NCBI GenBank assembly: GCA_017467845.1 | Contig: JAFUKH010000085.1 | Coordinates: forward strand, 47,192 to 111,191 | Direction of reading: 5' to 3' | DNA length: 64,000 nucleotides | From: Lachnospiraceae bacterium | GTDB lineage: Bacteria; Bacillota; Clostridia; Lachnospirales; Lachnospiraceae | Shown here: positions 1 to 35,858 of the stretch, piece by piece | How positions within the stretch are numbered: the stretch's first letter is position 1 | How the letters are laid out: every line of letters begins with the position of its first letter | Translations under genes and position numbers: made by a program | Notes under the pieces: generated by a model | What the model was told of the DNA's origin: nothing | Seen by the model: the letters and a program-made list of their open reading frames with translations, nothing else | Databases searched by the model: none

Positions 1-1
1 T

Positions 2-79
2 GGAAAAGCACAACAAATCAAGGAACGTGAAAGGCAGCTTTGTGAAATTCCAGCATTTTTGAACAGTCTGCAAACGTAG
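2..79 (+). CDS. C-terminal tail of an unidentified protein (partial)
   Basis: An open frame enters from the left edge and stops with TAG at 77-79. It reads 25 residues, polar at first (GKAQQIKERERQL) and ending EIPAFLNSLQT. Nothing in so short a tail identifies a family. The frame converges on azlD. Caution: bases 39-49 and 79-90 match, in the same order and spacing, two blocks of the 3.2-4.0 kb palindrome, so the frame may in part be a relic of that element and not a selected protein end. Confidence 0.3.
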   Translation, partial: GKAQQIKERERQLCEIPAFLNSLQT

Positions 80-147
80 GGGAGGTATTCCTCGCACAAC
101 ATTTCCCCAGCCCACTATACTTTGCAACTGCCCTTCATTTGCTTAAC

Positions 148-3079: not shown

Positions 3080-3092
3080 GAATCCCTCCTTG

Positions 3093-3169
3093 TTTCGTCC
3101 CTCGATATATTGTTTGTTGATGTATCGTCTCGCGATATATCATGTTTGTATTATATCGTCGCCCGATAT
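3093..3169. promoter_or_regulatory. Three PadR-type operators at 30-31 bp spacing
   Basis: Three inverted repeats of the form TATCG-N5-CGATA occur at 3093-3107 (TTTCG variant), 3123-3137 and 3153-3169 (extended to ATATCG/CGATAT). Their centres, at 3100, 3130 and 3161, are 30 and 31 bp apart, which places them on one face of the helix. The third lies inside the spacer of the padR promoter and the first just upstream of the padR ribosome binding site. Binding by PadR is inferred from position and symmetry. Confidence 0.7.
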
Positions 3170-3178
3170 ATTTGTCAA
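3150..3178 (-). promoter_or_regulatory. Consensus sigma-A promoter for padR-DUF2812
   Basis: TTGACA (3173-3178), 17-base spacer, TATAAT (3150-3155), both boxes perfect matches to consensus. A PadR-type operator fills the spacer, as expected for a strong promoter kept off by its own product. Confidence 0.85.
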
Positions 3179-3195
3179 CAGTATTTTTCCCGTAT

Positions 3196-4000
3196 TAAAA
3201 GGAGCTGTTGCAAAATACATATTAGGAGCAGAACAACGCTACAGGGGACGGGCTCCCCTACGGAAACATATGGTGCGTATCGCTTTGAGAGACTGGGCAG
3301 AATGAATACCTCCCCGGTAAAGGGCCTTGCGAGAACTGCGTAGAAATTTCCAAAATCAGCGTTTGCGTTCCATTCGTGTCTCGGCACGTGTTAGACGCAG
3401 TTAGGGTATCTGTCCTGCATAGGGCGGATTCAGCCCACCAGATATCAGCCGTCCTATCTTTATGGCAATGCCCCTATATCCGGAAGCTGGACGAAACTGC
3501 TTAAATTTCACAAAGCGCTGACTGCGTATTCTTATTAGTCCATGTCTGTCTAAGCTTTGAACAAAATAATAGAACTGTCCTTCTATCGTGATACATTACA
3601 AATGTCTCCCATAGAAGTGACAGTTCTATTATTTTGTCAAAGACGTATCCCGACATGGACTTAAAACGCAGTCAGCTACTTTGGAAATTTCTACGCACTT
3701 TCTTTAAGCTTCCGGATATAGGGGCATTGCCATAAAGATGACCGGCATTAATTCAAATCCAAAAATCCGCCTAATATGCGAACAGATACCCTAACTGCGT
3801 CTAACCTTGAAGAGACACGAAACAATCACAGAGCGCAAACGTGATTTTGTGAAATTTAAGCAGTTCACAGTAGGTCTTTACCGGGGAGGTATTCTTTCTG
3901 CTCCATCTCGCCAAGGCAGATACGTACCTTTTAACACCGTAGGGGAGCCCGTCCCCTGTAGCGTTTATTCACCTAGGCATCGTATTTTACAGCAACCTCA
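3196..4000. repeat. 0.8-kb imperfect palindrome with conserved paired blocks, no gene
   Basis: This stretch between the padR promoter and the SH3 gene holds no credible gene. It is a long inverted repeat centred near 3599. Exactly complementary blocks, left with right, are 3235-3263/3937-3965 (29 bp), 3304-3322/3876-3894 (19 bp), 3390-3413/3782-3805 (24 bp), 3456-3488/3707-3739 (33 bp), 3517-3526/3667-3676, 3538-3546/3652-3660 and 3561-3579/3619-3637 (19 bp). The segments between are diverged. Two more exact matches cross: 3337-3354 with 3680-3697 and 3495-3514 with 3846-3865. Outward short frames exist in both arms, but a one-base indel breaks frame agreement, so coding is unlikely. It could be a transposon-like relic or a large structured RNA. 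Confidence 0.85.
3561..3637. other. Central hairpin of the 0.8-kb palindrome
   Basis: A 19-bp perfect stem (ACAAAATAATAGAACTGTC at 3561-3579 with its complement at 3619-3637) continues through one unpaired base into a 7-bp stem (3580-3586 with 3611-3617), leaving a 24-base loop. It marks the centre of the palindrome and is the most AT-rich part. Confidence 0.8.
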
Positions 4001-4795
4001 CTCAACCACATATACATAACTACTGATACAATAGAGTACCTCTCCATTGTACTCTACTCTGGACCAGCCTACATCCGTATTGATGCCGGTACGATTTACC
4101 ACTTCTCCATACTTCAGCGTCACCACCACCGTTGCTTCCGGATTGGTAACACTAGGAAGCTTTCGAAGGTTCACCTCAATCTTGGGTGATACCTTTTCAT
4201 TGCATGCTGTAAACTCCGTTTTGATGCCGTCATCCTCCGGTACTACCACACGATAGTCCAAATCCGTTGTAAGTAAGCTGGACACTGCATAGTACTCTTC
4301 CCCATTGTATTCCAGCTTGGACCAGCCCATATCGCTGACTGCAATCCGCACTGCCACTTCTCCGTTTGGAAGTACTGCCAGCACATGACTCTCCGCCCCC
4401 TGACTTGGCATATCCCGCAGATTGGTAGCCTCTTTCGCCGTTACTTTTTCGTACACCTCCCGGAAATTCATGTCCGCAAAAGGATCGTCCGGCACCGGCT
4501 CCTGTGTAGGAGCCTCTGTAGGTGCTACAGTAGGTGTGGGACTTGGGGTAGGCGTTGGCGCTATTGTTGGCTCCGGGGTCACCTCCGGCGTAGGCGCCGC
4601 TGTCTCCTCTACAATCACCGCCGAGGATTCCTTGGCCATGGGCTCCTCATCTCCCTTAAGAAAACTAAAGAAAATGAATGTAGCTGCAAGTAATCCCAAG
4701 AAGGCAATGATACCGATTATAATACCATACTTGGCAATCTTACTCTCCTCATCATCCCAGTCAAACTCGTCTTCTTCCAATAAATTCTTACCCAT
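3998..4795 (-). CDS. Membrane-anchored protein with two bacterial SH3 domains
   Basis: A 265-residue protein with an acidic cytoplasmic N terminus (LEEDEFDWDDEESK), one membrane helix at about 24-46, a proline/threonine-rich linker (about 65-108) that should span the wall, and two bacterial SH3 repeats (about 118-185 and 200-263). Each repeat shows VNLR/TNLR then a GW-S-(K/R)-(L/V)-EYNGE motif. Such domains usually bind peptidoglycan or glycans; no enzymatic domain is attached. It lies downstream of a tandem-hairpin region and its stop codon touches the end of the 0.8-kb palindrome. A sensor or scaffolding role at the envelope is an inference. Confidence 0.75.
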   Translation of the reverse strand: MGKNLLEEDEFDWDDEESKIAKYGIIIGIIAFLGLLAATFIFFSFLKGDEEPMAKESSAVIVEETAAPTPEVTPEPTIAPTPTPSPTPTVAPTEAPTQEPVPDDPFADMNFREVYEKVTAKEATNLRDMPSQGAESHVLAVLPNGEVAVRIAVSDMGWSKLEYNGEEYYAVSSLLTTDLDYRVVVPEDDGIKTEFTACNEKVSPKIEVNLRKLPSVTNPEATVVVTLKYGEVVNRTGINTDVGWSRVEYNGEVLYCISSYVYVVE

Positions 4796-13870: not shown

Positions 13871-13927
13871 AATCGCATTAAAAAAGCTCCAAGAGAGTAA
13901 ACTCTCCGGAGCTTCTTGAATGCGATT
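13871..13927 (-). terminator. Intrinsic terminator of rplM-rpsI
   Basis: On the minus strand AAGCTCC-GGAGAGT pairs with ACTCTC-TTGGAGCT and is followed by TTTTTT. An outer stem, AATCGCATT (13871-13879) with AATGCGATT (13919-13927), encloses it. Confidence 0.85.
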
Positions 13928-34482: not shown

Positions 34483-35166
34483 CTATGCTTCAACCTTAAC
34501 GGTTTCTTTGATGGTAACTAAAGCCTTCTTAGGTCCTGGAACAGCACCCTTTACTAAAAGAAGATTCTTCTCAGCATCTACCTTTACAACTTCAAGGTTC
34601 TGAACGGTTACTCTTACGCAACCCATATGACCAGGCATTCCCTTACCCTTGAATACACGGCTAGGTGAAGAACATGCACCATTGGAACCCTGATGACGAT
34701 GGAACTTAGAACCGTGCTTCATAGGTCCTCTATGCTGTCCTAATCTCTTGATTGCACCCTGGAAGCCTTTTCCCTTAGAAATTGCAGAAGCATCAATCTT
34801 ATCGCCTGCTGCGAAGATGTCAGCCTTAATCTCTGCGCCTAAGGTATACTCCTCAGCGTTTTCAAACTTGAACTCTTTTACATATCTCTTAGAAGCTGTG
34901 CCAGCCTTCTTGAAGTGGCCCTGCTCAGCCTTGTTAACACCATGTCTGTGGATAACTTCCTTCTTACCACTTGCATCCTTGTTAACGATCTTGTCTTTCT
35001 TGTCAACGAAACCAACCTGTACTGCGCTGTAACCATCGTTCTCTTTCGTTTTAACCTGGGTTACTACACAAGGGCCAGCCTGAAGAACGGTTACAGGAAC
35101 TAATACGCCGTCTTCATTGAAGATTTGAGTCATTCCGACTTTGGTAGCTAAAATAGCTTTCTTCAT
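34483..35166 (-). CDS. rplC: 50S ribosomal protein L3
   Basis: A 227-residue L3, starting [26 protein letters not shown]. The finger that approaches the peptidyl-transferase centre is [30 protein letters not shown], with the downstream [15 protein letters not shown]. There is a 110-bp spacer after rpsJ in which I see no clear structure. Confidence 0.97.
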
Positions 35167-35594: not shown

Positions 35595-35858
35595 AAAAAA
35601 AGTCGCCTCCTTTTCGCACTTTCTAATTACTTAAGTACGACAAGCGGTGACTGTACACTCTCCCGTGTGTGTCCTAAACCTTTGCACATTCCTGCATCGC
35701 TTTACTTCACTTACACGCTTCTCTATCCTGTGATAGACTTGATTGTTTGTACAGTGACTTGTCGTCAGTTTCCTAACTTGACATTCGCTCCACGGAAAAC
35801 CTGCTGTAACTTACGTCTCAGCAGCAACCTCACGCTTCACAGCTATCATGCCACAGCA
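35595..35858 (-). promoter_or_regulatory. Structured leader of the S10 operon
   Basis: About 260 transcribed bases precede rpsJ. A long-range pair brings 35637-35657 (with ACGACAAG and TGTACA words) together with 35748-35765, enclosing about 90 bases. Inside is the hairpin CTATC-CTGT-GATAG (35723-35736). This layout suits autoregulation by a ribosomal protein, L4 being the precedent, but no known leader family was matched. Confidence 0.55.

What the first reader, a model, noticed from the sequence alone, without database searches (positions are those of the whole stretch)
3196..4000. 0.8-kb imperfect palindrome whose exact blocks pair partly in crossed order
The whole gene-free stretch folds on itself through seven nested exactly complementary blocks of 9-33 bp, separated by diverged sequence, so the blocks look selected. 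Two further exact matches break the nesting: 3337-3354 pairs with 3680-3697 and 3495-3514 pairs with 3846-3865. In RNA this would be a pseudoknot-like crossing; in DNA it could record inversion of the middle part between arms that had diverged. I know no described element with this layout.
Basis: partly seen in the sequence, partly recalled or inferred. Interest (0 to 1): 0.75.

Follow-up and report, generated by a model that had tools for sequence, protein, structure and literature searches.

The report
Dispersed nested hairpin element behind genes
The palindrome is one copy of a family of long, protein-free hairpin elements that sit right behind genes in a few gut bacteria; the odd crossed matches arise because each full element is one hairpin unit sitting inside another in opposite orientation, and copying between its two arms seems to make it absorb the ends of neighbouring genes.

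Summary
The palindrome is real, with the blocks and coordinates reported. It is not a unique scar: the same genome holds related sequence at 36 or more places (12 at contig ends), the double copies being 639-826 bp imperfect palindromes. Diverged copies occur in two other species of the genus, and single matches in two further Lachnospiraceae genera. Each full element is one hairpin unit nested inside a second in flipped orientation. That explains the crossed blocks; no pseudoknot is needed. Crossing held in 16 of 16 copies of one clade, but 2 of 10 scorable copies in another species carry the inner unit the other way. Internal loops are conserved, while stems change on both arms together without G-U excess. 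That fits DNA-level arm-to-arm copying better than selection on one RNA. Copies mostly abut stop codons (28 of 37 within 20 bp). At a few loci both arms contain the same gene tail. Two orthologous sites without the element carry a terminator-like hairpin. I read it as a non-autonomous hairpin element of gene 3' ends, moved in trans by an unknown enzyme. Mover, transcription and function are untested.

The parts
3196..4000 (.). whole imperfect palindrome (window copy; G000:C78:50387-51191)
   Evidence: fold
3201..3217 (+). outermost left arm, GGAGCTGTTGCAAAATA and its edge, terminator-like stem strand; pairs with about 3983-3999
   Evidence: sequence; pairing shown
3983..3999 (-). outermost right arm; overlaps the stop codon of the - strand gene 3998-4795
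3235..3263 (+). left arm of an intermediate layer (29 bp exact with 3937-3965); a similar layer without the core exists at G000:C2:60637-60778 (L036)
3937..3965 (-). right arm of the intermediate layer
3334..3400 (+). outer unit, left strand (X form: GCGTAG-AAATTTC-CAAA loop a, loops b and c)
3782..3866 (-). outer unit, right strand (Y form)
3494..3701 (+). inner unit, nested and flipped (Y form on the left arm, X form on the right arm)
   Evidence: covariance model hit 195 bits (this copy is among those the model was built from); flip test
3337..3354 (+). crossed block 1, loop-a motif in X form; identical to the reverse complement of 3680-3697
3680..3697 (-). crossed block 1 partner, loop-a motif in X form of the inner unit
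3495..3514 (+). crossed block 2, loop-a motif in Y form of the inner unit; identical to the reverse complement of 3846-3865
3846..3865 (-). crossed block 2 partner, loop-a motif in Y form of the outer unit
3456..3488 (+). stem between the two units (33 bp exact with 3707-3739)
3707..3739 (-). stem between the two units, right arm
1..140 (.). right end of a second copy whose body lies left of the window (palindrome at G000:C78:46594-47331, L022)

Best explanation
It is one copy of a dispersed, protein-free long-hairpin element family of Lachnospiraceae that lives at gene 3' ends. SHOWN: (1) many copies in one genome and diverged copies elsewhere. (2) Each full copy is two versions of one hairpin unit, the inner nested in the apical part of the outer in flipped orientation; this makes the crossed matches. 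(3) Unit loops (a: GCGTAG opposite GCTT around AAATTTC; b: an ATGATTA-like bulge; c: CACGTG opposite TTCAAG) are conserved while stems change on both arms together. (4) Most copies abut stop codons, and two orthologous sites without the element carry a terminator-like hairpin. INFERRED: (5) the element moves in trans as a non-autonomous element, with folded DNA and its loops as recognition signal; (6) arms are kept alike by template switching at the quasi-palindrome, which also copies flanking terminators and gene tails into the opposite arm until selection on the coding ends stops growth; (7) the composite hairpin serves as or replaces the bidirectional terminator. With the two units in opposite orientation, each DNA strand folds into one hairpin of each form, so the element is strand-symmetric.
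For: Copies: 70 matches in the own genome, which I grouped into 35 places with core sequence, 12 of them at contig ends, where two ends may belong to one copy; one more place at C11 (L111). Self-complementarity is 73-79% in the 15 double copies with both arms in view, even where copies differ by 30%. Nesting and flip: 16 of 16 tested double copies score higher flipped than unflipped; strand pattern. Conserved loops, variable stems. Pair counts on 20 chosen units: 96.4% of cells paired, 171 cells changed on both sides against 45.7 in shuffles (0 of 500 as high), slid controls 33-44% paired. No wobble excess: G-T 40, A-C 53, other mismatches 63, Watson-Crick 1780 in 18 copies. Over the 91 pairs of 14 copies, single-arm differences stay at 0.06-0.11 per pair site while both-arm differences rise from 0.014 (at least 92% identity; only 2 copy pairs, 3 changes) through 0.028 and 0.109 to 0.146 (under 80%); transitions and transversions are about equal, 238:216 in the last class. 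Stop codons: 28 of 37 places have one within 20 bp of a palindrome end; of 25 with both sides in view 15 lie between convergent genes, 10 between codirectional and 0 between divergent genes (mechanical ORFs). Sites without the element: G000:C2:2088-2127 and G292:C44:57890-57938 carry a terminator-like hairpin. Captured flanks: in L006 both convergent genes end CAAATAAATACAT, and the right gene has that tail in the relative too; in L146 of G008 both genes end KPQE-stop inside the arms (no ortholog checked). Template switching at quasi-palindromes in E. coli: PMC7202029 (abstract and start of introduction); as a source of paired stem changes: PMC8794818 (abstract and start of introduction).
Against: No mobilising enzyme was identified, and no target-site duplication or constant end was found for this family. 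There are only two orthologous site pairs; in one the terminator stem itself differs between species, in the other the copy is truncated, so the insertion boundary is not defined. L033, a copy with the outer unit only, looks like a deletion product and not an unfilled precursor (sequences), so nesting by insertion is inferred. Template switching would also erase loops; one copy (L140 in G008) does show both outer arms in the same form, but why loops persist elsewhere must be blamed on selection, which was not tested. A slow correction and selection on a hairpin used from both strands are not separated by these data. Of 13 convergent pairs read, a shared coding tail is clear only in L146 and L006, short in L004, no more than the stop codon in L035. 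For L019 the ancestral state rests on one relative that also carries an extra gene. In one other-genus match (L177) no gene 3' end was seen. Copies are related, so pair counts are not independent. The genomes known by name to hold the family are fragmented metagenome assemblies.
Confidence: 0.6

Rival explanations
1. A large structured non-coding RNA: the hairpin is transcribed from the flanking genes or its own promoter, the fold is under selection as RNA, and the conserved internal loops are RNA motifs that bind a protein or ion.
For: Strong covariation on 20 units; conserved internal loops within variable stems; very stable folds; unit loops recognisable by eye in two other genera. Selection on both strands would also give no wobble excess.
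Against: No excess of G-T over A-C mismatches on either strand reading (40 against 53), and paired changes are about as often transversions as transitions, unlike evolution through G-U. In L006, L019, L035 and L037 a terminator-like hairpin stands between each gene end and the core (sequences read). No Rfam family matches at gathering threshold; a relaxed search of 5 loci gave 7 matches, all microRNA models far below their gathering scores, best E 2.3e-05.
Confidence: 0.2
2. An ordinary MITE or foldback relic: a defective transposon with long inverted repeats, moved by a common DDE transposase, whose palindrome is only a leftover.
For: Dispersed, protein-free, intergenic, with recent near-identical parts (L009 and L020, 95.5% over 357 columns). 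An unrelated hairpin family in the same genome (family B) shows a 9-bp direct repeat TCACAAAAT around an insertion of about 188 bp at G000:C2:443-627. Several copies (L009, L010, L013, L014, L022, L033) share AAAGGGGCTGTTGCAAAATA-like ends.
Against: The ends are not constant: L003-L007, L017, L019, L034, L035 and L037 have quite different, locus-specific but self-complementary ends. No target duplication was evident for this family. A relic would not keep internal loops nearly invariant while stems change in step.
Confidence: 0.22
3. A one-off scar: a diverged inverted duplication whose middle part inverted, without further meaning.
For: The crossed blocks could come from an inversion, and alternate orientation of the inner unit exists in 2 of 10 scorable G008 copies.
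Against: 36 or more places in the own genome, copies in two other species of the genus, crossing in 16 of 16 copies.
Confidence: 0.02
4. An RNA pseudoknot in which the crossed blocks really pair.
For: The blocks are exactly complementary.
Against: Both minimum-energy folds are nested (the program cannot draw pseudoknots), and the nested partners also pair in the copies shown (its output was cut in the middle, so parts of L013 and L014 were not seen there). The crossed identity follows from unit duplication.
Confidence: 0.02

Closest known systems
REPINs / BIMEs (paired inverted REP sequences with RAYT transposases)
   Same: Dispersed, protein-free, extragenic, hairpin-forming inverted pairs; 8 of 15 double copies hold CCCCTAC and GTAGGGG, 3 more hold one of them, beside a GGGGA..TCCCC mini-hairpin. 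That a REP bears such a GTAG is recalled, from no call.
   Different: Several times longer; no invariant terminal 16-mer (the GTAGGGG part is absent in L006, L017, L019, L037 and not seen in the G008 copies read); two nested flipped units with conserved internal loops; RAYT not looked for. REPIN features from passages of PMC3116915.
ERIC/IRU and Yersinia palindromic (YPAL) sequences
   Same: Intergenic non-autonomous repeats of enterobacteria with foldable structure (passages of PMC2229807).
   Different: Those are 127 and about 168 bp; here 639-826 bp double units, and arms that take in neighbouring gene ends.
MITEs
   Same: Non-autonomous, dispersed, inverted repeats, no ORF.
   Different: No constant terminal repeat and no target duplication found; locus-specific outer arms.
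Intrinsic terminators / inverted repeats behind stop codons
   Same: Same genomic niche; base stem with T-run in several copies (L060, L013). PMC6060812 (passages) reports inverted repeats enriched just behind E. coli stop codons, mostly parts of terminators.
   Different: Short and not repeated families; here 639-826 bp hairpins of a shared family.
Stem-loop sequence families of bacterial genomes (Cozzuto et al. 2008)
   Same: Repeated families sharing a predicted fold, two thirds of them intergenic: 92 families from a set of 40 genomes (abstract of PMC2267715).
   Different: Not compared by sequence here.
Quasi-palindrome template-switch mutation
   Same: Arms made more alike; paired changes arise in one event (PMC7202029, and PMC8794818; abstract and start of introduction of each).
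   Different: A mutational process, not an element; here it would also explain capture of flanks and gene tails.

Membership tests
REPIN | two inverted copies of a highly conserved short REP at the ends | tested here: not met
   ends differ between copies; GTAGGGG/CCCCTAC absent in L006, L017, L019, L037
REPIN | RAYT (REP-associated tyrosine transposase) gene in the genome | not tested
MITE | no coding capacity, many dispersed copies | tested here: met
MITE | constant terminal inverted repeats | tested here: not met
   outer arms locus-specific in at least L003-L007, L017, L019, L034, L035, L037
MITE | target-site duplication | tested here: inconclusive
   two site pairs show a terminator-like hairpin in the relative and no direct repeat evident on reading
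Known structured RNA (Rfam 15) | match at gathering score | tested here: not met
   for the window; relaxed search of 5 loci gave only microRNA models far below gathering
Structured non-coding RNA | paired changes with G-U intermediates on one strand | tested here: not met
   paired changes themselves are strong
Intrinsic terminator | GC-rich stem followed by T-run at a gene 3' end | tested here: inconclusive
   seen at the base of L060 and L013 and within arms of L006, L019, L035, L037; activity not testable
ERIC / YPAL | sequence homology to the enterobacterial repeats | not tested
   no reference sequence was compared

The most novel reading that the evidence does not exclude
A mobile element whose information is a folded single strand: nested flipped hairpin units recognised through conserved internal loops, entering the loops of terminator hairpins, and growing outward by template switching so that it overwrites the terminator, stop codon and last codons of one neighbouring gene with those of the other. 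Several unrelated families (this one and family B) in the same genus would share the strategy.
Probability: 0.25. Interest if true: 0.85.

Novelty: new variant of a known kind. Interest (0 to 1): 0.62.

Why it matters
Bacterial genomes carry many palindromic intergenic repeats whose maintenance is poorly understood. This family separates two things usually confounded: loops conserved in sequence and stems conserved only in pairing, with a signature that fits DNA copying better than selection on one RNA. Covariation is commonly taken as strong evidence of a functional RNA, and this is a case where it may come from template switching. If arm capture is right, it is also a route by which one gene's tail is copied onto its convergent neighbour.

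Tried and rejected
Pseudoknot RNA: not needed, because the crossed identity is explained by the flipped inner unit. Unique scar: rejected by the copies. Known RNA family: none. Phage origin: 0 exact matches to the 19-base motif in viral contigs (a single exact motif, so a weak negative). DNA search with one copy found nothing in 60 sampled genus-mates nor in 199 other genomes of the family, but at most 9 and 2 candidates per genome were scored; G008 was among the 60 and was missed, and the covariance model then found it and two other genera. Of 19 stretches found by the GTDB motif scan, 7 are real copies (6 in RGIG4230, 1 in RGIG4182); of the other 12, six share only about 20-23 bases with known copies and six gave no match. 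RGIG4182 contigs are 99.5-100% identical to own-genome contigs and probably misbinned, so I do not count it as a separate species. L033 as an unfilled precursor: rejected after reading. A REPIN reading was considered and not kept because the GTAGGGG part is missing in several copies. No relative searched shows both flanks of the window copy together (G022 has the genes on its left at 70-73% identity), so I have no empty site for the window copy itself. Eight paper searches listed no paper that by title or abstract describes this family; the library is open-access only and the lists were capped.

Rows left out of counts: A2 holds 20 units chosen (L022 and L062 with an insert, L033, L011 and L111 of deviating length, and repeats of the same places were left out). 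One search analysed 14 chosen pairs, all 91 pairs of 14 copies, and both count only positions paired in both copies; both-sided changes that leave a mismatch are not in the double class. One search used 18 copies. In one search two of 12 G008 copies were unscorable: L153 (no outer motif) and L140 (both outer arms of one form). The 37 places include L036 (outer layer only) and L060 (the relative); ends of contig-edge copies were set by hand.

Full report
CHECK. The reported blocks of 11 bp or more and both crossed pairs are at the stated coordinates. The region is 76% identical to its own reverse complement and folds far better than shuffles on either strand. No Rfam family matches there.

COPIES. 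The window lies at G000:C78:47192-111191 in an unnamed 3.0-Mb, 105-contig assembly. Searching it with 3180-4010 gave 70 matches, which I grouped into 35 places with core sequence (L001, L003-L035, L037), 12 of them running off contig ends; the latter may pair up as halves of one copy. A further diverged place is at C11 (L111). L036 shares only the outer layer. The 15 double copies with both arms in view are palindromes of 639-826 bp (extents), 73-79% self-complementary, while copies differ from each other by about 4-34%. Others are shorter or truncated: L033 401 bp, L035 499 bp, L021, L023, L028 and L029 336-501 bp by hand-set ends.

UNIT AND FLIP. Alignment of 13 copies and arm-to-arm alignments (output cut in the middle) show one repeated motif set. 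One strand form, X, reads GCGTAG-AAATTTC-CAAA ... TTCGTGTCTCGGCACGTG. The other, Y, reads GCTT-AAATTTCACAAA ... CTATGATTATTCGTGTCTCTTCAAGG. The outer unit has X on the left arm and Y on the right; the inner unit has Y on the left and X on the right. So X matches X and Y matches Y across the nesting, which is the reported crossing. A score test preferred the flipped arrangement in 16 of 16 double copies: 15 of G000, and L062 from a contig of RGIG4230 that may belong to the G000 species. A single-unit copy exists in the relative: L060, 329 bp. L033 and L035 lack the inner unit; L033 looks like a deletion product.

CONSERVED LOOPS, CHANGING STEMS. In 20 chosen inner units, 70 pairs are predicted, 34 of them with changes on both sides. 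Counting gives 96.4% paired cells and 171 both-side changes, against 45.7 in shuffles and 16-33 in slid controls. The unpaired positions of loop a and the neighbouring AAATTTC stem hardly vary. Stem mismatches show no G-T preference (40 G-T, 53 A-C, 63 others, 1780 Watson-Crick in 18 copies). Over 91 pairs of copies the single-arm differences do not grow with divergence, while both-arm differences grow about tenfold, with about equal transitions and transversions; the lowest class rests on two copy pairs and three changes. Among close pairs single-arm differences outnumber double ones (7:1 and 7:2 in the two closest), so correction is not instantaneous. I infer arm-to-arm copying. That template switching does this at quasi-palindromes is known from E. 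coli (PMC7202029, abstract and start of introduction seen) and has been proposed as a source of paired stem changes (PMC8794818, same parts seen). Selection on the loops is an inference from their conservation. Constraint on a hairpin used from both strands would also fit the lack of wobble.

LOCATION AND CAPTURED FLANKS. Of 37 places examined with mechanical ORFs (recounted), 36 face at least one gene 3' end and 28 have a stop codon within 20 bp of a palindrome end. Of 25 with both sides in view, 15 are convergent (in 10 of these both stops lie within 15 bp), 10 codirectional and none divergent. In G008 5 of 7 copies have an end within 20 bp of a stop codon, a sixth at 22, a seventh at 50 and 67; L176 has one at 17 bp; in L177 no gene 3' end was seen. 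Synteny with the relative G259/G292 (RGIG4230, roe deer colon Lachnospiraceae; named) gave two site pairs. At C2:2088-2127 of G000 a short terminator-like hairpin stands where the relative has an element inside a terminator-like stem. At C44:57890-57938 of the relative a terminator-like hairpin stands where G000 has the truncated copy L021. In L006 the right gene's tail CTCGGCAAATAAATACATA is shared with the relative, and the left gene also ends CAAATAAATACAT inside the opposite arm. In L146 of G008 the convergent genes both end KPQE-stop within the arms; its ancestral state was not checked. In L004 both end ACGATTAA; in L035 only the stop and the sequence behind it are shared. Of the 13 convergent pairs printed the rest share no clear coding tail, so capture into coding sequence is not general. 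In L019 the right terminator of G000 resembles the left terminator of the relative more than the relative's right one by my reading; that is one locus and weaker.

SPREAD. A covariance model of the unit, run over the 138 held genomes of the genus with strict filters and at most 17 scored candidates per genome, hit G000 (17 matches), G292 (10), G293 (2, near-identical to G000 contigs) and G008 (12); counts are therefore lower bounds and misses weak. G292 is the same assembly as G259, and G293 the same as G260 (inferred from identical contig coordinates). Over 397 genomes drawn from the family, with 6 scored candidates each, it hit G000 and one place each in genomes of two other genera; both are palindromes (404 and 365 bp) in which I recognise the b bulge and c loop by eye. 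G008 palindromes measure 345-646 bp by self-alignment, 75-86% self-complementary, with the same loops and different stems. By loop motifs, 8 of 10 scorable G008 copies have the common arrangement and two (L148, L150) the other; L140 has both outer arms in one form, as if one arm had been copied onto the other. So the inner unit can invert, and copying that erases a loop seems to occur.

MECHANISM. Because X:Y is outer and Y:X inner, each strand of the element folds into one hairpin of each form; the element is the same whichever strand is exposed or transcribed. I think the likeliest history is a non-autonomous element whose folded DNA is recognised through its loops, entering terminator hairpins or their neighbourhood, then homogenised and extended by template switching until the coding ends set a limit. 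The mobilising enzyme is not identified; a terminator role is plausible, not tested.

LIMITS. The named genomes with the family are fragmented metagenome assemblies; the own assembly has 105 contigs. Copies are related, so counts are not independent trials. ORFs were called mechanically. The model searches can miss diverged copies. Open-access literature only; the eight paper searches are listed under Tried and rejected.

Noticed in passing
G000:C2:443-627, C2:6760-6939, C2:56676-56901: A second, unrelated hairpin family (family B, motif TTAGCGAGGTATTTTCGAGCTTAG) with conserved centre and locus-specific self-complementary stems; an empty site in the relative shows a 9-bp direct repeat TCACAAAAT around about 188 bp. 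The motif (up to 3 mismatches) occurs in 55 of 138 genus genomes, up to 57 places, control 0 in every row shown.
   Followed up: partly
G008:C109 near 34900-35100 (L179): A family B copy with another hairpin (AAAGGCCACCGG...) nested in its apical loop, again a hairpin inside a hairpin.
   Followed up: no
G292:C44:56509-56791 (L128): A third, different long palindrome at the place where the own genome has a family B copy.
   Followed up: no
window 1-140: Right end of a second copy of the element that lies mostly left of the window.
   Followed up: partly
L070 (G292:C27): A 3.3-kb contig with an element whose left flank matches one own-genome locus (L014, 96%) and right flank another (L029, 99.5%); recombination between copies or misassembly.
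   Followed up: no
window 3090-3178: Three 22-bp repeats spaced 30-31 bp and a 12-of-12 consensus promoter (3178-3150, - strand) in front of a PadR-like gene (name recalled, not searched), just outside the left arm.
   Followed up: no
window 35759-35848: S10-Clostridia ribosomal protein leader, Rfam RF03136.
   Followed up: no
window 13871-13927: A separate 57-bp palindrome, 83% self-complementary.
   Followed up: no
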